Assembly: GCF_016526145.1 (NCBI RefSeq)
Contig: NZ_JADDUE010000005.1
Span: 372,001-436,000 of the forward strand
DNA length: 64,000 nt
Reading direction: 5' to 3'
From: Saccharopolyspora galaxeae
GTDB taxonomy: Bacteria > Actinomycetota > Actinomycetes > Mycobacteriales > Pseudonocardiaceae
Shown in pieces: positions 728 to 54,401 of the stretch (its first letter is position 1; each line of letters starts with the position of its first letter). Both the position numbers and the translations under genes were made by a program. The notes under the pieces are model-generated. The model was not told where the DNA came from. It searched no databases and worked only from the letters and a program-made list of their open reading frames with translations.

Positions 728-2365
728 TCACAGCGGGATGTTGCCGTGCTTCTTGGCGGGCAGGGACTCCCGCTTGTCGGCCAGCATCCGCAGCGACCGG
801 GCCAGGTGGCCGCGGGTGTGCGACGGCGGGATGACCGAGTCGACGTAGCCGCGTTCGGCAGCGACGTAGGGGTTGCAGAGGGTGTCCTCGTACTCCTGCT
901 GCAGCTGCGCCCGCAGCGCCTCGACGTCCTCGCCCTTCTCCTCGGCCTCGGCGAGCTGGCGCCGGTAGAGGATGTTCGCCGCGCCCTGCGCGCCCATCAC
1001 CGCGATCTGCGCGGTCGGCCACGCCACGTTGATGTCCGCGCCGAGGTGCTTGGAGCCCATCACGTCGTAGGCGCCGCCGTAGGCCTTGCGCATGATCACG
1101 GTGACCAGCGGGACGGTCGCTTCCGCGTAGGCGTAGAGCAGTTTCGCGCCGCGCCGGATGATGCCGTTCCACTCCTGCCCGGTGCCCGGCAGGAACCCCG
1201 GCACGTCCACGAACGTCACGACCGGGATGTTGAAGGCGTCGCAGGTGCGCACGAACCGGGCGGCCTTCTCGCTGGCGTCGATGTCCAAGGTGCCGGCCAG
1301 CTGGGTCGGCTGGTTGGCGACCACGCCGACGCTGCGGCCCTCGACCCGGCCGAAGCCGACCACGATGTTCGGTGCGAACAGCGCCGAGACCTCCAGGAAG
1401 TCCCCGTCGTCGAGCACTCGGGAGAGCACTTCGTGCACGTCGTAGGGCTGGTTCGGCGAGTCCGGGACGAGCGTGTCCAGTTCCCGGTCCGCCTCGGTGA
1501 CGCCCTCCGCGATCGAACCGGCCTCCGCCTCGGCGTCGAACACCGGCGGTTCGGCGAGGTTGTTCGCGGGCAGGTAGGACAGCAGTTCCTTGACGTAGTC
1601 GATGCCGTCCTGCTCGTCGGAGGCCAGGTAGTGCGCGTTGCCGGAGGTCGAGTTGTGCGTGCGCGCCCCGCCCAGCTCCTCGAAGCTGACCTCCTCACCG
1701 GTGACGGTCTTGATCACGTCCGGGCCGGTGATGAACATGTGCGAGGTCTGGTCGACCATCACGGTGAAGTCGGTGATCGCCGGGGAGTACACCGCGCCGC
1801 CCGCGCACGGGCCCACCACCAGCGAGATCTGCGGCACCACGCCGGAAGCGTGCGTGTTGCGCTTGAAGATCTCCGCGTACAGGCCCAGCGCGGCCACGCC
1901 TTCCTGGATGCGGGCGCCGCCGGAGTCGTTGATGCCGACCAGCGGGCAGCCGGTCTTGAGCGCCAGGTCCATCACCTTGACGATCTTCTCGCCGAAGACC
2001 TCGCCGAGCGATCCGCCGAAGACCGTGAAGTCCTGCGAGAAAACGCAGATCTTGCGCCCGTCGACGGTGCCGTAGCCGGTGACCACGCCGTCGCCGTAGG
2101 GCCGGTTCTCGTCCATGCCGAAGTTCGTCGAGCGGTGCCGCGCGTGCTCGTCGATCTCCACGAACGAACCCGGGTCCAGCAGCAGGTCGACGCGCTCACG
2201 GGCGGTGAGCTTGCCCTTGGCGTGCTGGCGCTCGATGGCGCGTTCCGAGCCCGCGTGCACCGCCTCGTGGTTGCGCCGGTACAGATCCGCCAGCCGGCCG
2301 GCGGTGGTGTGGATGTCCGGCTCCTCGGCCGGCGGCACGCCCACCGGTTCCGTCGCGCTGCTCAT
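728..2365 (-). CDS. pccB: Propionyl-CoA carboxylase beta subunit (carboxyltransferase)
   Basis: A 545-residue biotin-dependent carboxyltransferase, the usual length for AccD5/PccB. The N-terminal half carries [13 protein letters not shown] (about 116-128) and the oxyanion-type [12 protein letters not shown] (145-156). The C-terminal half carries [17 protein letters not shown]. Asp434 sits where Streptomyces PccB has the Asp that favours propionyl-CoA, whereas acetyl-CoA enzymes usually have a hydrophobic residue; this points to propionyl-CoA as main substrate and methylmalonyl-CoA as product. It is upstream of the epsilon and alpha genes, with the palindromic element in the 250-bp gap. Confidence 0.93.

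Positions 2366-41322: not shown

Positions 41323-41326
<4 letters not shown>
41078..41326 (-). CDS. Aryl carrier protein for 2,3-dihydroxybenzoate
   Basis: An 82-residue stand-alone carrier protein. LLDWGLDSVRIMSLVERW shows the phosphopantetheine Ser (Ser38) in the LDSVR form typical of EntB/DhbB aryl carriers. In those proteins the carrier is fused to isochorismatase; here the two are separate genes overlapping by 4 bp. It would receive 2,3-dihydroxybenzoate from the EntE-type ligase. No condensing NRPS follows, so the acyl group must be used by an enzyme encoded elsewhere. Confidence 0.9.
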
Positions 41327-41985
<659 letters not shown>

Positions 41986-42019
41986 CGGTGATTCCTCCTG
42001 TCCTCGCTGCGAAATCCGT

Positions 42020-43648
42020 TCAGCGCCGCTGGAGTCCGGGGACGAGGTCCCGCTCGATCGCCGCGCGCAGGTCGCGCTTGCTGACCTTGCCGACGCCGGT
42101 CTGCGGGAACCGGTCGACGAACTCGACGCGGTCGGGCACCTTGTAGCCGGCCAGCCCGCGCTGCCGGACGAACTTGATCAGCTCCCGCGGTTTCGGCGCT
42201 TCCCCGCGCGGCACCACGAAGGCGCAGGTGCGCTCGCCGAGGTACGGGTCCGGCATGGACACCACCGCGGCGTCGTGCACCGACGGGTGCGCCAGCAGGT
42301 GGTTCTCCACCTCTTCGGCGGCGACCTTCTCGCCACCGCGGTTGATCTGGTCCTTGGCGCGGCCCTCGACCACGATGTTGCCTTCCGGGGTGAATCGGAC
42401 GACGTCGCCGGTGCGGTAGAAGCCTTCCGGCGTGAACGCCTTCGCGTTGTGCTCCTCGGCGTCGTAGTAGCCGCGGATGGTGTACGGACCGCGGGTGAGC
42501 AGGTGCCCGGTTTCCCCTGCTGCGACGGGGTTGTCGTCGTCATCGACCACCAGGACCTCGTCGTCCGGGGAGATCGGACGGCCCTGCGTGCCGACGATGA
42601 CCTCTTCCGGATCGTCCAGCCGCGTGTAGTTCACCAAGCCCTCGGCCATGCCGAAGACCTGCTGCAGCGTCGCCCCCAGCACCGGCCGCACCCGGCGCGC
42701 GACCTCCTCGCTGCACTTCGCGCCGCCGATCTGCAGCACTCGCAGGCTGGAGAGGTCGTGCTCGGTGTGCTCGGCCGCGTCCAGCCACACCAGCGCCAGC
42801 GGCGGCACGGCCGCCACCAGCGTGGCCCGTTCGGTTTCGACGAGCGGGAAGACCTCGTCCGGGCTGGAGCGCCGCGCGAGCACCACCCGGCCTCCCGCGT
42901 GCAGCACGCCGAACGTTCCCGGGGAACTCATCGGGAAGTTGTGCGCGATCGGCAGCGCCGCCAGGTACACCGTGTCCGCGGTGACACCGCAGATGTCGTT
43001 GCTGGCGCGGAACGAGTACAGGTAGTCGTCGTGGGTACGCGGGATCAGCTTCGGAACACCGGTGCTACCGCCGGACAACTGCAGGAAGGCGATGTCGCCG
43101 GGATCCGGTCCGTCCAGTTCGGACGGCTCTGCGTCCACATCAGACAGCGCGGTGAAGCCGGTGTCGCCCGGATCGCCCGCGATGAGCACCCGCCCCAGCC
43201 CCGGCACCTTCCCCGCCACCTCGGCGGCCAGCGTGCGGTGGTCGAACCCGGCCTCCACGTCGCAGGTGATGTAGGCAGCGGCGGCGCTGAACTCGCAGAA
43301 GTAGGACACCTCGGTCAGCCGGTGCGACGGCAGCGCGAACACCGGCACCGCGCCCAGCCGGAACAGCGCGAAGCACACCTCGAAGAACTCCGCGATGTTC
43401 GGCAGCTGCACCACGACGCGGTCCTGCCGGGCAATCCCCAGCTCACGCAACCCGGCAGCCAGCCGGTCCGCGCGCTCGTCGAGCTCGGCGTAGGTGATCC
43501 GGCGCCGCTCATCGACGATCGCGACCCGATCGCCGCGCTCGGCCGCGCGGGCGCGCAGCAGCGCGCCGAAGGTCTCCCCGCGCCAGTAACCGGCTCGCCG
43601 GTAGCGGCGGGCGAAATCTTCGGGCCAAGTGGGACATCCGGGCAGCAT
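42020..43648 (-). CDS. 2,3-Dihydroxybenzoate-AMP ligase (EntE/DhbE type)
   Basis: A 542-residue stand-alone adenylation enzyme that activates 2,3-dihydroxybenzoate and loads it onto the aryl carrier. [20 protein letters not shown] (ATP loop), [14 protein letters not shown] (aryl pocket), [17 protein letters not shown] and [14 protein letters not shown] are typical. ATG 43648 follows GAGGA by 7 bp and gives the family N-terminus [12 protein letters not shown]; the ATG at 43669 is less likely. It starts 40 bp after the isochorismate synthase stop. Confidence 0.95.
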
Positions 43649-43688
43649 CGTGCATTCCTCTTCGATCATTGGCCAAGAACGGGTGCGA

Positions 43689-44945
43689 CTACAGCGCGCC
43701 GGACCACCCCATGGCCGACAACGCGGTGCGGAATTTGGCGGAGGTTTCGGCGAGCTCCTCGGCCGGATCGGAGCCCTCGACGATTCCCGCGCCCGCGTAC
43801 AGCCGCAGCGCCGCATCTTCGATCTCCGCGCAGCGGATCGTCACGACCCACTCGCCGTCACCGGCCGCGTCGCACCAGCCGACCATCCCGGTGTAGAAGC
43901 CGCGCTCGAACGGCTCGGCCTCGGCGATGGCCTGCCGCGCGGGTTCCGGCGGAGTACCGCACACCGCGGGCGTCGGGTGCATCGCCACTGCCAGCTGCAG
44001 CGACGAGGTGGCGGGGTCGGCGAGCTCACCGGTCACCTCGGTCGCCAGGTGCCACATCGCGGCCGTGCTGCGCACCGACGGACGCTCCGGGACGACGAGT
44101 TCGGTGCAGTACGGGCGCAACGCGTCCGCGACCGCCTCCACGACGGCGGCGTGCTCGCGCAGGTCCTTGTCCGACTCCAGCAGCTCCGCGGCGCGGCGGC
44201 GGTCCTCGGCCGGGTCGTCGCTGCGCGGGCGGGAGCCGGCCATCGGGTTCGCCCGCACCTGGGTGCCGTGCCGCGACACCAGCAGCTCCGGGCTCGCGCC
44301 CAGCAGCGTGCGCGCGAGTTCGGGCTGCGGGCCGAAGTTGTCCCGCGAACCGTCGGCGCCGCGCCGCGGCAGGTCGACCGCGTAGGTGTAGCCGCCGGGA
44401 TCGGCGGCGGCCAGGTTGCGCAGCATCCGCGCCGGATCGATTCGGTCCGCAGTGGACAGTTCCAGCGAGCGGGCCAGCACCACCTTGCTCAACTCGGCGC
44501 TGCGCAGCCGTTTGAGCACCCGCTCCACCGCCCGCTCGTACTCGCCCGGCGCAGGCACCTGGCGCAGTTCGTAGTCGCCGCCGGCCGATTCCGCCGCCGG
44601 GGCCACCACCGCCGACTCGCCCAGCGGTTGCGCGCGGACGACCTCGCTGGGCAGCACCAGGTGCGCGGGCAGATCCCCGTCGAACGGCACCGCACCCACC
44701 ACGAGCGGATCGCGGCGGCCGAATTCCTCGGCGTGGCGCAGGAAATCCGCCACCCTCCGGGGAAGCCCGGAGCGTCCGTAGGCGCACGTCGTCTTGGGCA
44801 CCGTGGCGTCCACCCCGCGGGCCAGCATCGAACCGCGCGGAGAGGCGAAGAAGAACGACGAGCCCGCCGCGTACTCCGCGAGCAGTTCGGCCGCGTCCGC
44901 GGTGTCCCGGAACATGCCGGTGCCGGTGTCGCTGTCAGTGGTCAT
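43689..44945 (-). CDS. Isochorismate synthase (EntC/DhbC type)
   Basis: A 418-residue chorismate-binding enzyme that converts chorismate to isochorismate. Conserved features: [44 protein letters not shown] and the C-terminal [20 protein letters not shown]. It supplies the isochorismatase encoded downstream. ATG 44945 begins [12 protein letters not shown]. Second gene of the iron-regulated set, 47 bp after the dehydrogenase stop. Confidence 0.95.
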
Positions 44946-44992
44946 GTGAGCCTTCCGTGCGAGGCGTTGCGGAGTGGGCCGGGCGCGCGGTC

Positions 44993-45775
44993 TCAGGCGC
45001 GCAGCGTGGCGCCACCGTCCACGTAGAGGTCGTGCATGGTGATGTGCCCGGCCTGCTCGGAGACCAGGAACACCACCGCCTCCGCGATGTCCTCCGCGGT
45101 GGCCAGCTTGCCCAGCGGGATGCCGGTTTTGAACGTTTCCGGCGAGCCGGCGATCACCGCGGCGGCACCCTGCTGGTCCCACAGGGCGTGCTGCATCGGG
45201 GTGTCGGTGGAGCCCGGCGAGACCACGTTGCAACGAATGCCGTGCTCGGCCAGCTCCAGGCCGAGGGATTTGGTGAACAGCGTGGCCGCTGCTTTGGACG
45301 CGCCGTAGGCGGCCATTCCCTGACGCGGGACGCCCGCCGCGTTGGAACCGACCGTGACGATGGCGCCGCGGCTGCGCGGGATCATCAGCTCTGCGGCCGC
45401 GCGGCACATGTGGAACACGCCGTTGGTGTTCACCGCGAAGGTCCGGTGCCAGTCGGCGTCGGAAAGCTCAGCGACCTTGCCGGGGTGCAGCACTCCGGCG
45501 ACGTTGACCAGGATGTCGACCGGGCCTGCTTCGTCCTCCGCGCGGCGCACCGCGGCCCGTGCCGCGTCGGCATCGGCGACGTCGGCCGGGCAGGCCAGCA
45601 TCCGGCGCTGCTTGGCTTGCGCGGCCGCGGCGAGCTCGTCGAGCCCTTCCGCGTCGACGTCCACAGCGGCCACGGTGGCCCCCAGCTCGCCCAGCGCGTG
45701 GGCGACCGTGGCACCGATCCCGCGGGCGGCTCCGGTCACCACGGCCGTTCGGCCGCTGATGCCAGTTCGGTCCAT
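44993..45775 (-). CDS. 2,3-Dihydro-2,3-dihydroxybenzoate dehydrogenase (EntA/DhbA type)
   Basis: A 260-residue SDR that oxidises the isochorismatase product to 2,3-dihydroxybenzoate using [18 protein letters not shown] binds NAD, and the active site is in [38 protein letters not shown] is close to the EntA group. ATG 45775 follows AAGGA by 5 bp. First gene of the set; an IdeR-type iron box lies 57 bp upstream. Confidence 0.93.
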
Positions 45776-45831
45776 TGCGTCCTTTCCTCCCACAACGGCG
45801 CGCGGTGCGCTGCGGCGATGCCGCGAGCCTG

Positions 45832-46513: not shown

Positions 46514-47968
46514 TCACGCGGGTGGGACCACACCCCGCACGAAGCCGAGTTCGAGCAGGTCCTGCGGACGCAGCTTGAGCCGGTCGGCCAACTCCGGTGC
46601 CTCCTCCGGCGGCCGCTTCAGGATCGCCGCGCTCGATTCCGGGGCGATCACGGCGAAGTAGGCGTCCGCGGTGATCCAGGTGGACTCCGGCGCGGCCAGC
46701 GCGAGCGCTCCCCCGGAACCGCCCTCACCGATGACCAGCGTGGTGATCGGCACCCTGGCCTCGGCCACGGCGGTGAACAGCTCCGCGATGGCCGGGCCGA
46801 CGCCGGTGCGCTCGGCCTCGGCGTCGTTGGCGGCACCGGGGGTGTCCACCAGCGTCAGCACCGGCAGGCCGAGCTGGTCGGCGAGGCGCACCAAGCGCGC
46901 GGCGGTCCGGAAACCCGCCGGGTTGTTGGCGGTGCCGTCCTGCGCGGCGTAAGCGACCGGACGCCCGTCGTGTTCGCCGATTCCGCACAACATCCCGGAG
47001 TCCGTGCCGCCGGCACGGTCTCCGCTCAACGAGAACCGGGAGGTGAAATACCGGTCGAGGTAGTCCTGCGCATGCGGCCGGTCGGCGGCGCGGGCGCGGC
47101 GAACGGCATCCCATCCGGTGCCGGGCTCGGGTCGCCGGGTGATCGGTTCCGGCAGGTCGGCGGGGGCCGGCGGGCGGACCAGGCGTTGCGGGTGCAGCAG
47201 CTCCACCAGCCGGGCCAGCACCTGCGGTAGCTCGGTGTCGTCGACGAGCCGGTCGACCTGACCGTCGGTGACCTTGCCCGCGGCGGTGAACGAAGCACTC
47301 TTCTCGTCAGGGGTGCGCACCCGGCTGCCGCCGAAGGCAACATCGGCTTCCGGGGAGGCGAGCACGATGTCGGCACCTGCGGCCAGGGACGCCCACATGC
47401 CGCCCGTCGTCGGGTTGCGCAGCACGGTGATGTGCGGGATCCGCGCCTGCCGGGTCAGCAGGCAGGCGCGGGCGATCGCCTGCAGCTGTGCGAGCGCGCG
47501 GATGCCCTCCTGCATCCGGCTGCCGCCGGATGCGACCAGGGAGATCACCGGCAGACGCAGCTCGCGCGCCCGCTCGAAGGCGTGCACCACGCGGGCTCCA
47601 GCGGTCTCCCCGACCGAACCGCCCAGGAAACCGAACTCGAACGCGATCAACACGGCCTGCCCGGCGCCGATGCGTCCCTGTCCGCACAGCACGGATTCGT
47701 CGGCGCCGGTGCGTTCGGCCGCGCGGCACCGCTGTTCGTCGTAGCCGGGCCAGCGCAGCGGGCCGTCCGCGGTGGAAACCGCGTCCGGGTTGCTCACATC
47801 CGGCGCCATCCGCTCGTCCGGGTCCGCATCCGCAACATGATCGAACGCGGCTGCCGCGGGCTCCGGTCCGCCCGCAGCCGTGCCGGTGTGCGGGACCTCG
47901 AACTCCTCGAAGTCCGCGCACAGCGACTCGATCAGGACGCGCACGCCGTTCCCGCGCTGGTCAACCAT
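46514..47968 (-). CDS. Fused AccD-AccA-type carboxyltransferase, probable malonyl-CoA decarboxylase or carboxylase component
   Basis: A 484-residue protein joining two crotonase-fold halves. The AccD-like half (about 90-235) has FGFLGGSVGETAGARVVHAF, LVASGGSRMQEGIRALAQLQ and PTTGGMWASLAAGADI. The AccA-like half (about 290-480) has DTPGAANDAEAERTGVGPAI, VIGEGGSGGALALAAP and YFAVIAPESSAAILKRP. The four-Cys zinc finger that normally opens AccD is missing, and no biotin carboxylase or carrier is nearby. Its ATG overlaps the MatB stop by 8 bp, so the two are co-translated. In this setting it may decarboxylate malonyl-CoA; acetyl-CoA carboxylation with distant partners is the alternative. Confidence 0.75.
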   Translation of the reverse strand: MVDQRGNGVRVLIESLCADFEEFEVPHTGTAAGGPEPAAAAFDHVADADPDERMAPDVSNPDAVSTADGPLRWPGYDEQRCRAAERTGADESVLCGQGRIGAGQAVLIAFEFGFLGGSVGETAGARVVHAFERARELRLPVISLVASGGSRMQEGIRALAQLQAIARACLLTRQARIPHITVLRNPTTGGMWASLAAGADIVLASPEADVAFGGSRVRTPDEKSASFTAAGKVTDGQVDRLVDDTELPQVLARLVELLHPQRLVRPPAPADLPEPITRRPEPGTGWDAVRRARAADRPHAQDYLDRYFTSRFSLSGDRAGGTDSGMLCGIGEHDGRPVAYAAQDGTANNPAGFRTAARLVRLADQLGLPVLTLVDTPGAANDAEAERTGVGPAIAELFTAVAEARVPITTLVIGEGGSGGALALAAPESTWITADAYFAVIAPESSAAILKRPPEEAPELADRLKLRPQDLLELGFVRGVVPPA

Positions 47969-49412
47969 GCAGGGCCTTCTTCATGATCTTGCCCATCTCG
48001 TTGCGTGGCAACGAGTCCACGAACCGCACCTCGCGGGGCCGCTTGTGCGGGGTGAGCAGTCGGGCGACGTGTTCGGTGAGCTCGGCGGCCGTGCCGTCGC
48101 GGTCGGTCAACTCGCCTGCGGGCACGACCCAGGCGACGATGCGCTCGCCCAGGTCCGGATCCGGTGCGGCGGCGACCGCGACCTCGGCGACCAGCGAGTG
48201 CTCCAGCAGCGCGTTCTCGATCTCGCCGGCGCCGATCTTGTAACCGCCGCTTTTGATGATGTCGGTGGCCTTGCGCCCGACAATGCGCAGGTAGCCGTCG
48301 GCCGCCCGGGTTGCGACGTCACCGGTGCGGAACCAGCCGTCCGCGAACGCCTCCGCGGTGGCGTCCGGCCGGTTGAGGTAGCCGGTGAACAGGTTGCTCC
48401 CGCGAACCAGGATCTCCCCTACCGTCTCGTCGTCGCTGACTTCGATGTCCCGGCCCGCGTCGTCGACGAGTTTGATCTCCACCCCGTCGAAGGGCAGCCC
48501 GACGTAACCGGGTCTGCGGTCACCGGATGCCCGGACCCCGGAATTCATGATCGTTTCGCTCATGCCGTAGCGCTCCACCACGCGCTGCCCGGTCGATCGC
48601 GAGATCCGCTCGTGCTCCACGGCGGGCAGCGCGGCCGATCCGGACACCAGCAGTCGCGCCCGGCCGACCGCCTTCGCCAGGTCCGGATCGCGCTCGGCGT
48701 CGTCGGCGAGCCGGTGGTACATGGTCGGCACCCCGAACAACATGGTCGCCGACCCGGCCAGTTCATCGGCCGCCGCCTGCGGGGAGAACTTGCCGAGGTG
48801 GTGCACGGTGCCGCCGAGCCGCAGCGGTCCCAGCGTGCCGAGGATCAAGCCGTGCACGTGGAACAGCGGCAGCGCGTGCACCAGCACGTCTTCGGCGGTC
48901 CACTCCCACGCGTCGGCCAGCGCGTCCAGGTTCGCCCGGATGGCGCGGCGCGGAAGCACCACGCCCTTCGGCGGTCCGGTGGTGCCGGACGTGTAGACGA
49001 CGAGCGCGGGCGATTCCTCGTCCGGTTTGGGCGGGAGCGCTCCGCTGCCCGGTGCCAGGTCGACCTCGTGCACCGGGATCTGCCGCAGCACCTCGGGCGG
49101 TTGGAACCCGGGCGCCGCCAGCAGCAATCCCGGCTCGCTGTCGCCGACGATGTGCTCGAGTTCCCGCTCGCCCACCTTCGGGTTGATCGGCACCACCGCT
49201 GCCCCGGCGGCCAGCGCGCCTGCCACGGCCACGCAGGTCTCCAGTTCGGCGGTCGCCCACACCGCGACCCGTTCGGCGCGCCCCACCCGCTCGGCGATGC
49301 CGCTCGCGGCCGCGGCCAGCTCCCGGTAGGTCAGCGCGCGGTCACCGAACCGCAACGCCTCCTCGTCGTCCGGGCGCCGCAGCTTCGGGAACAACTCCGT
49401 TGCGCGATCCAT
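47961..49412 (-). CDS. matB: Malonyl-CoA ligase (MatB)
   Basis: A 483-residue AMP-binding enzyme that makes malonyl-CoA from malonate, CoA and ATP. LVVYTSGTTGPPKGVVLP (ATP loop), HALPLFHVHGLILGTLGPL, ERYGMSETIMNSGVRASGD, RRPGYVGLPFDGVEIKLV and the C-terminal RNEMGKIMKKALHG closely follow Streptomyces MatB, which also accepts methylmalonate. It lies between the dicarboxylate carrier (28 bp upstream) and the carboxyltransferase fusion (8-bp overlap). Confidence 0.9.
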   Translation of the reverse strand: MDRATELFPKLRRPDDEEALRFGDRALTYRELAAAASGIAERVGRAERVAVWATAELETCVAVAGALAAGAAVVPINPKVGERELEHIVGDSEPGLLLAAPGFQPPEVLRQIPVHEVDLAPGSGALPPKPDEESPALVVYTSGTTGPPKGVVLPRRAIRANLDALADAWEWTAEDVLVHALPLFHVHGLILGTLGPLRLGGTVHHLGKFSPQAAADELAGSATMLFGVPTMYHRLADDAERDPDLAKAVGRARLLVSGSAALPAVEHERISRSTGQRVVERYGMSETIMNSGVRASGDRRPGYVGLPFDGVEIKLVDDAGRDIEVSDDETVGEILVRGSNLFTGYLNRPDATAEAFADGWFRTGDVATRAADGYLRIVGRKATDIIKSGGYKIGAGEIENALLEHSLVAEVAVAAAPDPDLGERIVAWVVPAGELTDRDGTAAELTEHVARLLTPHKRPREVRFVDSLPRNEMGKIMKKALHG

Positions 49413-49439
49413 GGCGTACCTCCGAGCTCCGTTGCAATT

Positions 49440-50690
49440 TCACCCCAGACCGGGGACGACGAAAATGAGCCAGGCCACTGCCGGGCCCGCGGCGGCGACC
49501 GCTGCGCCGTAAACCAGCAGGCGCCGGAAGAACACTTCCCGATCGACGCCCTTCGCGTTGGCCAGCACGATCGCCCCGTTCGTGGAGAAGGGGCTGACGT
49601 CGACGAGCGTGGCGCTGACGGCCAGCGCGGTGACCATGCCGACCGCTCCGATCGCCCCGGTCTCCAGGAACGGCACGGCCAGCGGGATCAAGGCACCCAT
49701 CAGTCCGACCGAACTGGCGAACGCCGAGACGATGCCGCCGATGTAGCACAGCAGCACCGCGGCCAGCAGCGGCAATCCGACCCCGGCCACGGCGTGGCCC
49801 ACGTAGTCGATCGTGCCCATTTCCTTGAGCACGCCGACGTAGGTCAGCACACCGCAGATCAGCAGCACCGTGGGCCAGGTGACCTCCGCGGGAGCGTTCG
49901 CGGCCGCCTTCGGCGACATCACGGTCAGCACCACGGCCACGGTCATCGCCACCAGGCCGGCGTCCAGCTCGAACACCAACGTGCACACCACGAGCGAGAC
50001 CAGCCCGAGCAACGTCAGCACCCGGTCTCTGGTGAGCCGCATGAACTCGGCCGATTCCTCTTGATCGGGTGCGACCGGCTGGCTGCGCGCCAGCCGCATG
50101 CCGCCGAGCACCACGAAGACCACGGCCGCGATCAGCAGGTTCGCCGCGAAGCTGCCGAGGAACAGCACCAGCGGACTGCCGGGCAGCTTGTTGTCGGCGA
50201 CCACGCCGTTGACGATCACGCCGTACACGCTGATCGGCGAGAACCCGCCTGCCTGCGCTCCGTGCACGACCATCGCGCCCATCAGCAGCGGGTTGATGCC
50301 GTGCCGGGCCGCGAGGTTCAGCGCGATGGGCGCGACGATGGCGCACGCGGCCGGGCTGACCGCGCCGATCGCGGTGAGCACCGCACCGACACCGAACATC
50401 ACCCAGGGAATGACCGCGAGCCGTCCGCCGACCAGCCGCACCGCCCAGTGCACCAGCCAGTCCGTGGTGCCGTTGGCCCGGGCGATCGCGAACAGGTAGG
50501 TCACGCCGACCAGCACCACGAAGATGTCGCCGGGGAAGCCGGCGAAGATGTCGTCGTCGGAGAGCCCGCCGGCGAGCTTGCCGACGGCGAACGCGGCGGC
50601 GAACGCCAGCACCCCCATGTTCACCGACATCGTCGTGGCCAACGCGAAGCAGGCCACCAGCGCGAAGATCGAGATCAACTCGGGCGACAC
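49440..50690 (-). CDS. matC: Malonate/dicarboxylate carrier (MatC type)
   Basis: A 416-residue membrane protein with about 11-12 helices. The N-terminal part (ISIFALVACFALATTMSVNM) and the repeated GLSDDDIFAGFPGDIFVVLV and GAQAGGFSPISVYGVIVNGV fit the MatC branch of dicarboxylate carriers. It probably imports malonate. Start is GTG 50690 with GGGGAGA upstream. First gene of the minus-strand malonate set; divergent from a GntR regulator across 180 bp. Confidence 0.87.
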   Translation of the reverse strand: MSPELISIFALVACFALATTMSVNMGVLAFAAAFAVGKLAGGLSDDDIFAGFPGDIFVVLVGVTYLFAIARANGTTDWLVHWAVRLVGGRLAVIPWVMFGVGAVLTAIGAVSPAACAIVAPIALNLAARHGINPLLMGAMVVHGAQAGGFSPISVYGVIVNGVVADNKLPGSPLVLFLGSFAANLLIAAVVFVVLGGMRLARSQPVAPDQEESAEFMRLTRDRVLTLLGLVSLVVCTLVFELDAGLVAMTVAVVLTVMSPKAAANAPAEVTWPTVLLICGVLTYVGVLKEMGTIDYVGHAVAGVGLPLLAAVLLCYIGGIVSAFASSVGLMGALIPLAVPFLETGAIGAVGMVTALAVSATLVDVSPFSTNGAIVLANAKGVDREVFFRRLLVYGAAVAAAGPAVAWLIFVVPGLG

Positions 50691-50735: not shown

Positions 50736-50813
50736 ATTGGTTCACTGGATGGACCACTTTGCGCCTCGGCCCGAACACCGTCAAGGCTGAATTGGTCGAC
50801 TGGACGAACCTCT
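50736..50813. promoter_or_regulatory. Two operator-like 23-bp repeats for the GntR regulator
   Basis: Copies at 50736-50758 and 50791-50813 agree at 18 of 23 positions (ATTGGTTCACTGGATGGACC and ATTGGTCGACTGGACGAACC). The first is a partial dyad TGGT...ACCA, the form recognised by FadR-type GntR proteins. Starts are 55 bp apart, about five helical turns, which would place two dimers on one face of the DNA. Confidence 0.6.
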
Positions 50814-50870: not shown

Positions 50871-51575
50871 GTGTCCGACGCGCTGCGCCCGCTGACCCGG
50901 CCGAAGCTCTACGAGCAGGTCGTGGTGCGGTTGCGCGAGCACGTCGCCGCTTCCGGGCTGGACGTCGGCGACCGCCTACCGCCGGAACGGGAGCTGGCCG
51001 ACCGGCTAGGGGTGAGCCGCGCCTCGGTGCGCCAGGCGATCGTCGTCCTGGAAGTCCAGGGCCTCGTCGAGGTGCGCCACGGCGGCGGCACCTACCTGCG
51101 CGAGCGCGTGCTGGACAGCGAGCCGGTGGAAGAGCTGGTGGCGCGGCGCCGCAGGTTGCCGGACGTGCTCGACGCCCGGGAGGCGCTGGAGACGAAGCTT
51201 GCCGAACTCGCCGCCGAACGCCGCACCGAGCAGGACCTGACCGAGATCGACGCGGCGCTGGCCGACATGCGCGGCCAGGTGGAAGCCGGCGACCTCGGCG
51301 GCGACGGGGACCGCCGGTTCCACGCCGCGATCACCGCGGCCGCGCACAGCACGATGCTCGCGGACTTCATGCGCACGATCGCCGACGAGATCGCCGAGAG
51401 CCGCCAGGAGTCGCTGCGCCAGCCCAACCGCCCGCCGCAGTCGCTGCGCCAGCACGAGCGCATCGCCGAAGCGATCCGCGCGGGCAACGCCCGCACCGCG
51501 GTCACCGCGATGCGCCGCCACCTGCGCACCGTCAGCCGCGTCCGGTTGCTCAGCTGGGATCCGGACGCGGACTGA
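50871..51575 (+). CDS. GntR-family regulator, FadR/FCD subfamily (MatR-like by context)
   Basis: A 234-residue regulator. The winged helix at about 10-75 reads LYEQVVVRLREHVAASGL, then RLPPERELADRLGVSRASVR and GLVEVRHGGGTYLRE. The all-helical FCD ligand domain (about 95-225) has VLDAREALETKLAELAA, DRRFHAAITAAAHS and HERIAEAIRAGNARTAVTAM, with Asp/His residues able to bind a metal and a carboxylate. GTG 50871 follows GGAGG. Divergent from matC, it probably represses the malonate genes until malonate or malonyl-CoA binds. Confidence 0.88.
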   Translation: MSDALRPLTRPKLYEQVVVRLREHVAASGLDVGDRLPPERELADRLGVSRASVRQAIVVLEVQGLVEVRHGGGTYLRERVLDSEPVEELVARRRRLPDVLDAREALETKLAELAAERRTEQDLTEIDAALADMRGQVEAGDLGGDGDRRFHAAITAAAHSTMLADFMRTIADEIAESRQESLRQPNRPPQSLRQHERIAEAIRAGNARTAVTAMRRHLRTVSRVRLLSWDPDAD

Positions 51576-52280: not shown

Positions 52281-54401
52281 ATGGCTTCCCACCACGGCGA
52301 CAAGCAGGAGCAGCTCGACGGCGTCCGCAAGGACGTCGAAGACACCTACTTGACCACCCAGCAAGGCGTGCGAGTCGACCACACCGACGACTCGCTGACC
52401 GTCGGCGAGCGCGGTCCGACGTTGCTGGAGGACTTCCACGCGCGCGAGAAGATCACCCACTTCGACCACGAACGCATCCCGGAGCGGGTGGTGCACGCGC
52501 GCGGCGCGGGCGCCTACGGCTACTTCCAGCCCTACGACGGCTGGCTGGCGGACTACACGGTGGCGAAGTTCTTGACCGACCCGCAGGAGCAGACGCCGGT
52601 GTTCATCCGGTTCTCCACCGTCGCGGGTTCGCGGGGTTCCGCGGACACCGTCCGGGACGTGCGCGGTTTCGCGACCAAGTTCTACACCAGCCAGGGCAAC
52701 TACGACCTGGTCGGCAACAACATGCCGGTGTTCTTCATCCACGACGGGATCAAGTTCCCCGACTTCGTGCACGCGGTGAAACCGGAGCCGGACAACGAGA
52801 TCCCGCAGGCGCAGTCCGCGCACGACACGCTGTGGGACTTCGTTTCGCTGCAACCGGAAACGCTGCACATGATGATGTGGCTGATGTCGGATCGGGCGAT
52901 CCCGCGCAGCTACCGGATGATGCAGGGCTTCGGCGTGCACACGTTCCGCCTGGTCGATGCGCAGGGCAGGGGCACCTTCGTGAAGTTCCACTGGAAGCCG
53001 ATGCTCGGCACGCACTCGCTGGTCTGGGACGAGTGCCAGAAGGCGGGCGGCAAGGACCCGGATTTCAACCGCCGGGACCTGTGGGAGGCCATCGAGACCG
53101 GCCAATACCCGGAGTGGGAACTGGGCGTGCAGCTGGTCGACGAATCCTCCGAACACGACTTCGACTTCGACCTGCTGGACGCCACCAAGATCATCCCCGA
53201 GGAGGAGGTCCCGGTGCGTCCGGTGGGCAAGCTGGTGCTCAACCGCAACCCGGACAACTTCTTCGCCGAAACCGAGCAGGTCGCGTTCCACACCGCCAAC
53301 GTGGTCCCGGGCATCGACTTCACCAACGACCCGCTGCTGCAGGCCCGCAACTTCTCCTACCTGGACACCCAGCTGATCCGGCTGGGCGGGCCGAACTTCG
53401 CGCACATCCCGGTGAACCGGCCGGTCGCCGAGGTCAGCAACAACCAGCGCGACGGCTTCCAGCAGCAGCGGATCCACCGGGGCCGCACCAGCTACACCAA
53501 GAACAGCCTCAGCGGCGGCTGCCCGGTGATCGCCGGGACCGACGAGGGAGCGTTCCACCACTACCAGGAGAAGGTGGAAGGCCAGAAGATCCGCAAGCGC
53601 AGCGAGAGCTTCAAGGACTACTACAGCCAGGCCACCCTGTTCTGGAACAGCATGGCGTCCTGGGAGAAGGCGCACATCATCGCCGCGTTCCGGTTCGAGC
53701 TGGGCAAGGTCGACCACCACCACGTGCGGGAGGCCGCGGTCGAGCAGCTCAACCACGTCGACCACGAGCTTGCCGTGCAGGTCGCCGAGGGCATCGGCGT
53801 CACGCCGCCGGAGTCCGCGGTCACCACCAACCACGGCCGCAGCTCCCCGGCGCTGAGCCAGTCGAACTCGGTGACCGGCACGATCGCCACCCGCAAGGTG
53901 GCCGTGCTCGTCGGCGACGGGGTCGACCCGACCGAGGTCGACCAGATCCGCCGCGGGTTGTCCGAACGCGGCGCGGTCGCCGAGGTGCTCGGGTTGCGGG
54001 ACGGCACGGCGCGCGGCTCGGACGGCGACGATGTCCGCGTGGACCGCGCGATCAGCACGATGGCCTCGGTGGTCTACGACGCGGTGATCGTGCCGGGCGG
54101 TTCGGAAAGCGCGCGGGCGCTGTCGGCGGACGGCTACGCGGTGCACTTCGTCGCCGAGGCGTACAAGCACGCCAAACCGGTCGCGGCCAGCGATGAGGGG
54201 CTGGCCGTGCTGCAGCGTGCGGGCATCAACGACGTCCGGCAGGCCGGTGCGAGCGGCGGCGACGGCGTGGTCGCCGACCGGGGCGTCGTCACCGCCGCCG
54301 CGACCGGTGGCGCGCTGCCGGAGGGGTTCCTGGCGGAGTTCGCCAACGCGCTCGCCGGTCACCGGGTGTGGGATCGGGACACCGATTCCGTCGCGGCGTG
54401 A
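52281..54401 (+). CDS. katE: Large-subunit catalase (HPII/KatE type)
   Basis: A 706-residue clade 2 catalase that breaks down hydrogen peroxide. The catalytic His is His72 in [13 protein letters not shown], the Asn lies in [11 protein letters not shown], and the haem Tyr lies in [14 protein letters not shown]. After the catalase core (to about residue 500) comes a DJ-1/PfpI-like C-terminal domain (about 530-700: [20 protein letters not shown] and [15 protein letters not shown]), as in HPII. GGAGGTAGGTA precedes the ATG. Confidence 0.95.

What the first reader, a model, noticed from the sequence alone, without database searches (positions are those of the whole stretch)
46514..50690. Malonate operon with a zinc-finger-less fused carboxyltransferase in place of malonyl-CoA decarboxylase
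Seen: minus-strand order matC-matB-fused AccD/AccA, with an 8-bp overlap between matB and the fusion gene. Known: classical mat loci use MatA to decarboxylate the malonyl-CoA made by MatB; mdc systems use MdcD/MdcE, which are carboxyltransferase relatives working without net carboxylation. Inferred: the fusion (both halves in one 484-residue chain, no four-Cys zinc finger, no biotin genes nearby) may decarboxylate malonyl-CoA to acetyl-CoA, giving a hybrid of the mat and mdc routes. Carboxylation with a distant biotin carrier is the alternative.
Basis: partly seen in the sequence, partly recalled or inferred. Interest (0 to 1): 0.7.

Follow-up and report, generated by a model that had tools for sequence, protein, structure and literature searches.

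The report
Malonate operon with carboxylase-like decarboxylase
A soil actinobacterium's malonate-use genes carry, where the usual decarboxylase gene should be, a fused relative of the fat-making enzyme acetyl-CoA carboxylase that stands without biotin partners and most likely runs backwards, turning malonyl-CoA into acetyl-CoA.

Summary
On the minus strand lie matC, matB and a fused AccD/AccA-like carboxyltransferase (CT), with an 8-bp matB/CT overlap and a divergent GntR gene. The core is conserved: matB lies directly upstream with an overlapping start in 77 of 80 named relatives, while matC and GntR are optional. The genome shows no canonical MatA and no MdcA.

The 76 zinc-finger-less fused CTs in my tree form one clade, apart from 18 carboxylase-type CTs. 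Zinc-finger CTs have a biotin carboxylase within 6 kb in 12 of 12 loci, zinc-finger-less ones in 0 of 64. The latter pair with MatB or, in 10 loci, with a family III CoA-transferase in MatB's place. Three carboxylase-invariant residues are changed in all 76; the N-half oxyanion glycines stay.

Best reading: a biotin-independent malonyl-CoA decarboxylase replacing MatA. No activity was measured. A 2019 paper (PMC6491548, section read) already calls a Saccharopolyspora erythraea CT, presumably this gene, a "MatA" ortholog. New here: the clade, the missing biotin partners, the swapped activating enzyme, and a possible role for mycobacterial AccD3.

The parts
46514..47968 (-). Fused AccD/AccA-like carboxyltransferase without zinc finger, 484 aa; proposed malonyl-CoA decarboxylase
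47961..47968 (-). 8-bp overlap of the matB stop and the CT start (ATGGTTGA)
   Evidence: overlapping starts in 77 of 80 named loci
47961..49412 (-). matB, malonyl-CoA synthetase
   Evidence: NF005858 708.8 bits, cut-off 575; 3nyq, 620 bits
49440..50690 (-). matC, dicarboxylate carrier
   Evidence: MatC_N 9e-60
50744..50758 (-). Weak operator-like site between matC and GntR (10 of 14 positions of AGTGGCTNAGCCACT); not above chance in the window as a whole
50871..51575 (+). Divergent GntR/FCD regulator, optional part of the unit

Best explanation
A malonate-assimilation unit. MatC imports malonate (inferred from family). MatB makes malonyl-CoA from malonate, ATP and CoA (strong family inference). 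The fused carboxyltransferase, its gene overlapping matB (shown; coupled translation inferred), binds malonyl-CoA, holds the thioester oxyanion with the glycines of its N-half SGG-RMQEG motif and releases CO2 to give acetyl-CoA without biotin, biotin carboxylase or a zinc finger (inferred). It thus replaces MatA. GntR probably controls the unit (inferred). In relatives without matC the same pair would clear malonate that arises inside the cell (inferred).
For: matB directly upstream with overlapping start in 77 of 80 named loci. No PF05292 in the own genome; the same search finds it in 4 of 396 genomes of the phylum. One clade of 76 zinc-finger-less fused CTs, SH-aLRT 100, with 0 of 64 loci beside a biotin carboxylase against 12 of 12 zinc-finger loci, and a biotinyl motif in 0 of 70 and 0 of 80 against 10 of 12. 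MatB's place is taken by a family III CoA-transferase directly upstream in 10 loci; in L147 and L186 the order is GntR, MatC, CoA-transferase, CT. Positions 226, 380 and 390, uniform in 18 of 18 carboxylase-type CTs (F, Y/F, Q), are changed in 76 of 76; glycines 148-149 are kept in 94 of 94. MdcD-MdcE, a CT-fold pair, decarboxylates malonyl-CoA in vitro (PMC5534430, passages). MatB carriers have a zinc-finger-less CT in 25 of 37 genomes against 44 of 359 others (relatedness not corrected).
Against: No activity data. The C-half oxyanion motif is intact in the window type, and the window type's C half is no more diverged from carboxylases than its N half (37.1% and 36.5% identity; the wider type 37.1% and 42.0%), unlike MdcE. 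The genome has 6 biotin carboxylase and 14 biotin/lipoyl domains that could serve in trans, including an AccB-AccC pair with no CT seen beside it. Loss of the finger and of biotin neighbours is one event on the tree, not many. 12 of 37 MatB genomes show no such CT. G171 holds PF05292 and a window-type CT together.
Confidence: 0.7

Rival explanations
1. An ordinary biotin-dependent carboxyltransferase that borrows a biotin carboxylase/carrier encoded elsewhere and makes malonyl-CoA from acetyl-CoA, so that the operon supplies malonyl-CoA by two routes.
For: CT fold; C-half oxyanion motif kept; 6 BC and 14 biotin/lipoyl domains in the genome, with an AccB-AccC pair near LamB/YcsF; PMC10302056 lists SCO2445/44 as a carboxylase pair (passages).
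Against: 0 of 64 relatives beside a BC; carboxylase-invariant residues changed in 76 of 76; two different malonyl-CoA-making or dicarboxylyl-CoA-making enzymes are coupled to it; AccD3, probably of this clade, bound no partner (PMC4347857, passages).
Confidence: 0.15
2. A biotin-free decarboxylase whose main substrate is another malonyl-type thioester, such as methylmalonyl-CoA, made by a broad-range MatB.
For: 14 of 57 wider-type loci share B12-binding and succinyl-CoA-ligase-like gene families, one representative of each named; broad MatB range is recalled.
Against: These loci belong to other subclades than the window's; MatC_N carrier and MatB beside the window's CT point to malonate.
Confidence: 0.08
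3. A transcarboxylase that moves the carboxyl group of malonyl-CoA onto a biotin carrier or another acyl-CoA instead of releasing CO2.
For: The listed Foldseek matches include the transcarboxylase 12S subunit; both oxyanion motifs are kept in the window type.
Against: Biotinyl motif near zinc-finger-less CTs in 0 of 70 and 0 of 80 loci; no second acyl-CoA enzyme is constant beside matB-CT.
Confidence: 0.05

Closest known systems
Carboxyltransferase of multi-subunit acetyl-CoA carboxylase (AccD + AccA)
   Same: Both halves, order, fold and oxyanion glycines
   Different: One chain, no zinc finger, no biotin carboxylase or carrier at the locus, invariant residues 226, 380 and 390 changed
Malonate decarboxylase MdcD-MdcE
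   Same: CT-fold pair that decarboxylates malonyl-ACP and, in vitro, malonyl-CoA without biotin (PMC5534430, passages)
   Different: Window protein misses MdcD/MdcE cut-offs; no MdcA in the genome; would act on malonyl-CoA from MatB, not on a carrier protein
matABC operon of Rhizobium trifolii
   Same: MatB, MatC and a GntR-type regulator (R. trifolii order recalled)
   Different: MatA (PF05292 fold, recalled) is absent; the CT stands in its place
SACE_3856 and the S. coelicolor 'MatA' of PMC6491548
   Same: Placed with CTs said to catalyse the reverse reaction and named malonyl-CoA decarboxylase (section 5 read); presumably orthologs of the window gene, but I saw no sequence of either
   Different: No assay in the parts I read; equated there with R. 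trifolii MatA, recalled to be an unrelated fold
Mycobacterial AccD3
   Same: Divergent CT that bound no partner (PMC4347857, passages); nine mycobacterial-type rows of the tree are probably AccD3 (inferred from kinship and recalled size)
   Different: No MatB, CoA-transferase, GntR or MatC found beside those nine rows; function stated to await study (PMC5311964, passages)

Membership tests
Acetyl-CoA carboxylase carboxyltransferase (AccD/AccA) | CT fold with the oxyanion glycines | tested here: met
Acetyl-CoA carboxylase carboxyltransferase (AccD/AccA) | Four-Cys zinc finger of the AccD lineage | tested here: not met
   found in 12 of 12 BC-linked fused relatives and in 6 of 6 outgroup rows
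Acetyl-CoA carboxylase carboxyltransferase (AccD/AccA) | NCBIfam AccA and AccD cut-offs | tested here: not met
   172 of 357 bits (PRK05724), 151.7 of 319.3 (accA), 122 of 317.45 (accD)
Acetyl-CoA carboxylase carboxyltransferase (AccD/AccA) | Biotin-dependent carboxylation of acetyl-CoA | not testable with these tools
   Partners in trans exist
Malonate decarboxylase (Mdc) | MdcD and MdcE family cut-offs | tested here: not met
   61.8 of 278.15 (malonate_beta), 32.3 of 237.15 (malonate_gamma); MdcE 25.1 of 32.7
Malonate decarboxylase (Mdc) | MdcA acyl-carrier transferase in the genome | tested here: not met
   PF16957 0 matches; the control rang in E. coli
Malonyl-CoA decarboxylase (MCD/MatA) | PF05292 domain | tested here: not met
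   not in the CT; not in the genome; the 14 control genomes did not ring, but 4 of 396 phylum genomes did
mat malonate-assimilation operon | MatB with MatC | tested here: met
mat malonate-assimilation operon | MatA of the PF05292 family | tested here: not met
Biotin-independent malonyl-CoA decarboxylase | Turnover of malonyl-CoA to acetyl-CoA without biotin | not testable with these tools
   Needs purified protein

The most novel reading that the evidence does not exclude
A whole actinobacterial clade of zinc-finger-less fused carboxyltransferases, including mycobacterial AccD3, left biotin chemistry in one step and became stand-alone malonyl-CoA (and perhaps methylmalonyl-CoA) decarboxylases, plugged into interchangeable CoA-activating modules: MatB ligase, family III CoA-transferase, or succinyl-CoA-ligase-like and B12-binding genes.
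Probability: 0.5. Interest if true: 0.75.

Novelty: new variant of a known kind. Interest (0 to 1): 0.58.

Why it matters
It would be a further genetic route for malonyl-CoA decarboxylation beside MCD/MatA and Mdc, correct genes now annotated as acetyl-CoA carboxylase subunits, give polyketide engineers a native malonyl-CoA drain to delete, and offer a testable role for AccD3, which PMC4347857 doubts is a carboxylase subunit and PMC5311964 leaves open (passages). It would also show how a biotin enzyme can shed its biotin half.

Tried and rejected
Rejected: (1) The downstream SDR gene (44993-45793) as part of the operon: it neighbours an AMP-ligase and an isochorismatase gene, and close copies (66-78%) occur in 8 of 80 loci, each Saccharopolyspora. 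It reads as a catechol siderophore cluster (partly recalled). (2) 'No zinc finger' as proof by itself: the six other own-genome CTs lack it. (3) The amidase beside the CT of L132 and L133 as a malonamidase: the closest solved structures are other amidases. (4) A shared GntR operator as evidence: 27 of 31 divergent gntR regions score 12 or more of 14, but the window scores 10, L008 11, L186 10 and L045 9; the six gntR-CT loci score 8 to 11; 11-scoring sites occur elsewhere in the window; L147's 13-scoring site lies over the start of gntR; and the consensus came from these same sequences. I give it no weight. (5) Viral contigs: no relative confirmed. (6) Papers: ten searches showed me no assay of this protein and no paper on the CoA-transferase/CT pairing; one search gave 0 papers. 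Only open-licence PMC text was searched, and I read passages, except section 5 of PMC6491548.

Limits: one search scored at most 4 candidates per genome, so its absences are soft. The tree used 9 of 80 named loci and left out L148; support is SH-aLRT from a quick search. Biotin carboxylase was sought with one probe protein, and several loci end soon after the CT, so neighbour counts are lower bounds. The Fisher test is not corrected for relatedness.

Full report
What is there. On the minus strand lie matC (49440-50690), matB (47961-49412) and a 484-residue fused AccD/AccA-like carboxyltransferase (CT, 46514-47968), with a divergent GntR/FCD gene at 50871-51575. MatB matches the malonyl-CoA ligase 3nyq at 620 bits. 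The CT scores 1.9e-52 for ACCA and 2.8e-30 for Carboxyl_trans, is below the cut-off for MdcE, and is below the cut-off of all nine NCBIfam models listed, AccA, AccD, MdcD and MdcE models among them. The AlphaFold2 model (mean pLDDT 80.6, pTM 0.82) is a CT fold: the 50 Foldseek matches shown, of 547 at E 0.001 or better, are carboxyltransferase chains of carboxylases or transcarboxylase. The window lies in a 6.4-Mb genome, probably a Saccharopolyspora: the first-listed named relative, Saccharopolyspora sp. NFXS83, is 77% identical in the best segment and 84% in the alignment.

The unit is conserved. One scan of named genomes found 214 relatives and kept the best 80: Saccharopolyspora, Halopolyspora, Streptomyces, Saccharothrix, Amycolatopsis. 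In 77 of 80, matB lies directly upstream with an overlapping start, 71 by 8 bp and 6 by 4 bp. Of the other three, L015 begins at a contig edge, L028 has 0.6 kb upstream without matB, and L017 keeps what looks like a remnant of matB's start. Of 75 loci with more than 4 kb upstream, 23 have matC, 28 a close GntR, and 46 neither. The core is matB-CT; carrier and regulator are optional.

No classical decarboxylase. PF05292 (MCD/MatA) has no match in the own genome. The 14 control genomes did not ring, but 4 of 396 genomes of the phylum did, so the search can find it. One of the four, G171, is Streptomyces-like: it has PF05292 beside a MatB (40% identical) and a GntR, and its window-type CT has no matB beside it; a closer MatB lies elsewhere in that genome. 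MdcA (PF16957) has no match in the own genome.

One clade without biotin partners. In the phylum sample of 396 genomes, window-type CTs (14 genomes, 55-63% identical over most of their length, one split copy apart) score 460 bits or more, and a wider set of fused CTs (32-43%) 266 or less. I fetched loci of these and compared them. Zinc-finger fused CTs have a biotin carboxylase within 6 kb in 12 of 12 loci, zinc-finger-less ones in 0 of 64, the named loci in 0 of 80. A biotinyl-lysine motif in a fitting context is found in 10 of 12, 0 of 70 and 0 of 80. In a tree of 94 rows, the 76 zinc-finger-less CTs form one group with SH-aLRT 100; the 18 carboxylase-type rows (12 fused, 6 outgroup) fall outside. 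This is one evolutionary event, not 64 independent observations. The six other CTs of the own genome also lack fingers, so the trait means something only in this lineage.

A second activating enzyme. Of 57 wider-type loci, 14 have a family III CoA-transferase within 6 kb, against 0 of 12 zinc-finger loci. In 10 it lies directly upstream on the same strand, in 5 of these with a possible 4- or 8-bp overlap, as matB does. L147 and L186 read GntR, MatC, CoA-transferase, CT, with GntR and MatC 49-61% identical to the window's. L185, in the same subclade, instead has a MatB (68%) divergent beside the CT. A named example, Rhodococcus sp. USK13 plasmid pUSK13_1, has a CoA transferase overlapping a CT by 4 bp. 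The CoA-transferase's closest solved relatives are a CAIB/BAIF protein and succinate-hydroxymethylglutarate CoA-transferase. Two unrelated ways of making a dicarboxylyl-CoA thus feed the same kind of CT, which suits a decarboxylase and is hard to explain for a carboxylase. Another 14 of the 57 share B12-binding and succinyl-CoA-ligase-like genes, one representative of each named, a hint at methylmalonyl-CoA. Not helpful: the nine AccD3-like rows and others show none of the probed neighbours, and two plasmid examples sit beside a hydroxyacyl-CoA dehydrogenase or an aldo/keto reductase. Three window-type CTs of another class (L132, L133, L209) have no matB nearby.

Residues. Against 18 carboxylase-type CTs, all 76 zinc-finger-less CTs have changed positions 226 (F in 18 of 18), 380 (Y/F in 18 of 18) and 390 (Q in 18 of 18). 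W451 (17 of 18) is kept in 8 of 57 wider and 0 of 19 window-type rows. Glycines 148-149 are kept in 94 of 94. The C-half motif GEGGSGGALA is intact in the window type at its glycines and varied in the wider type. Against my reading, the window type's C half is no more diverged from carboxylases than its N half (37.1% and 36.5%; wider type 37.1% and 42.0%), unlike MdcE, which PMC5534430 reports as much less conserved because it binds no biotin (passages).

Mechanism, with status. Malonate import (family inference); malonyl-CoA synthesis by MatB (strong family inference); decarboxylation by the CT without biotin (inferred; MdcD-MdcE shows that the fold can do it in vitro); coupling through overlapping genes (sequence shown, effect inferred); GntR control (inferred; the operator-like site is strong in most relatives but weak here). 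The main rival is a biotin-dependent CT with partners in trans: the genome has 6 BC and 14 biotin/lipoyl domains, including an AccB-AccC pair near LamB/YcsF.

What is known. PMC6491548 (section 5 read) places SACE_3856 with CTs 'that catalyse the reverse reaction' and calls it an ortholog of MatA from S. coelicolor and R. trifolii: the same functional idea, without an assay in the parts read, apparently merging two unrelated folds (R. trifolii MatA as PF05292 is recalled). That SACE_3856 and SCO2445 are orthologs of the window gene is presumed; I saw neither sequence. PMC10302056 lists SCO2445/44 as a carboxylase pair (passages). PMC4347857 reports that AccD3 bound no partner, 'raising doubts' about a CT role; PMC5311964 says its function awaits study and notes a second homologue in M. 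smegmatis (passages). That nine grouped mycobacterial-type rows of the tree are AccD3 is my inference from kinship and recalled size.

Co-occurrence. 37 of 396 genomes carry the MatB family over its cut-off. 25 of them have a zinc-finger-less CT, against 44 of the other 359 (Fisher p 7e-13, relatedness not corrected); 12 of 37 show none.

Verdict. The locus is real and conserved. The best reading is a biotin-independent malonyl-CoA decarboxylase standing in for MatA (0.7), already named in print for a presumed sister protein but, as far as the searches listed under Tried and rejected show, neither assayed nor placed in its clade. A new variant of a known kind.

Noticed in passing
window 41323-45793: Isochorismatase, AMP-ligase and SDR genes with an isochorismate-synthase-like frame between them: probably a catechol siderophore (2,3-DHB) cluster ending just before the malonate unit.
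   Followed up: partly
window 737-2230: A second carboxyltransferase of the propionyl/acyl-CoA carboxylase type, with a biotin carboxylase and biotinyl domain just outside the window.
   Followed up: partly
L017 (Streptomyces carpinensis), before 1366: matB appears reduced to an N-terminal remnant while the CT frame stays open.
   Followed up: partly
L148 (G193): CT homology split into two stretches inside one long open frame, an insert between the AccD and AccA halves.
   Followed up: no
L135 and L134 (G171): A Streptomyces-like genome with both the classical PF05292/MatB/GntR set and a window-type CT without matB beside it.
   Followed up: partly
L132, L133, L209: Window-type CT in a different class of the phylum, without matB nearby; an amidase in L132 and L133, and a short-chain fatty acid transporter and TRAP DctM in L133; these genomes also hold ordinary AccD and AccA hits.
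   Followed up: partly
G000:C28 55636-57197 (L218): Free-standing biotin carrier and biotin carboxylase genes near a LamB/YcsF gene, with no CT seen in the stretch.
   Followed up: partly
window 52281-54401: Large catalase with a DJ-1/PfpI-type C-terminal domain, next to a VTT-domain gene; kept near the unit in several Saccharopolyspora.
   Followed up: no
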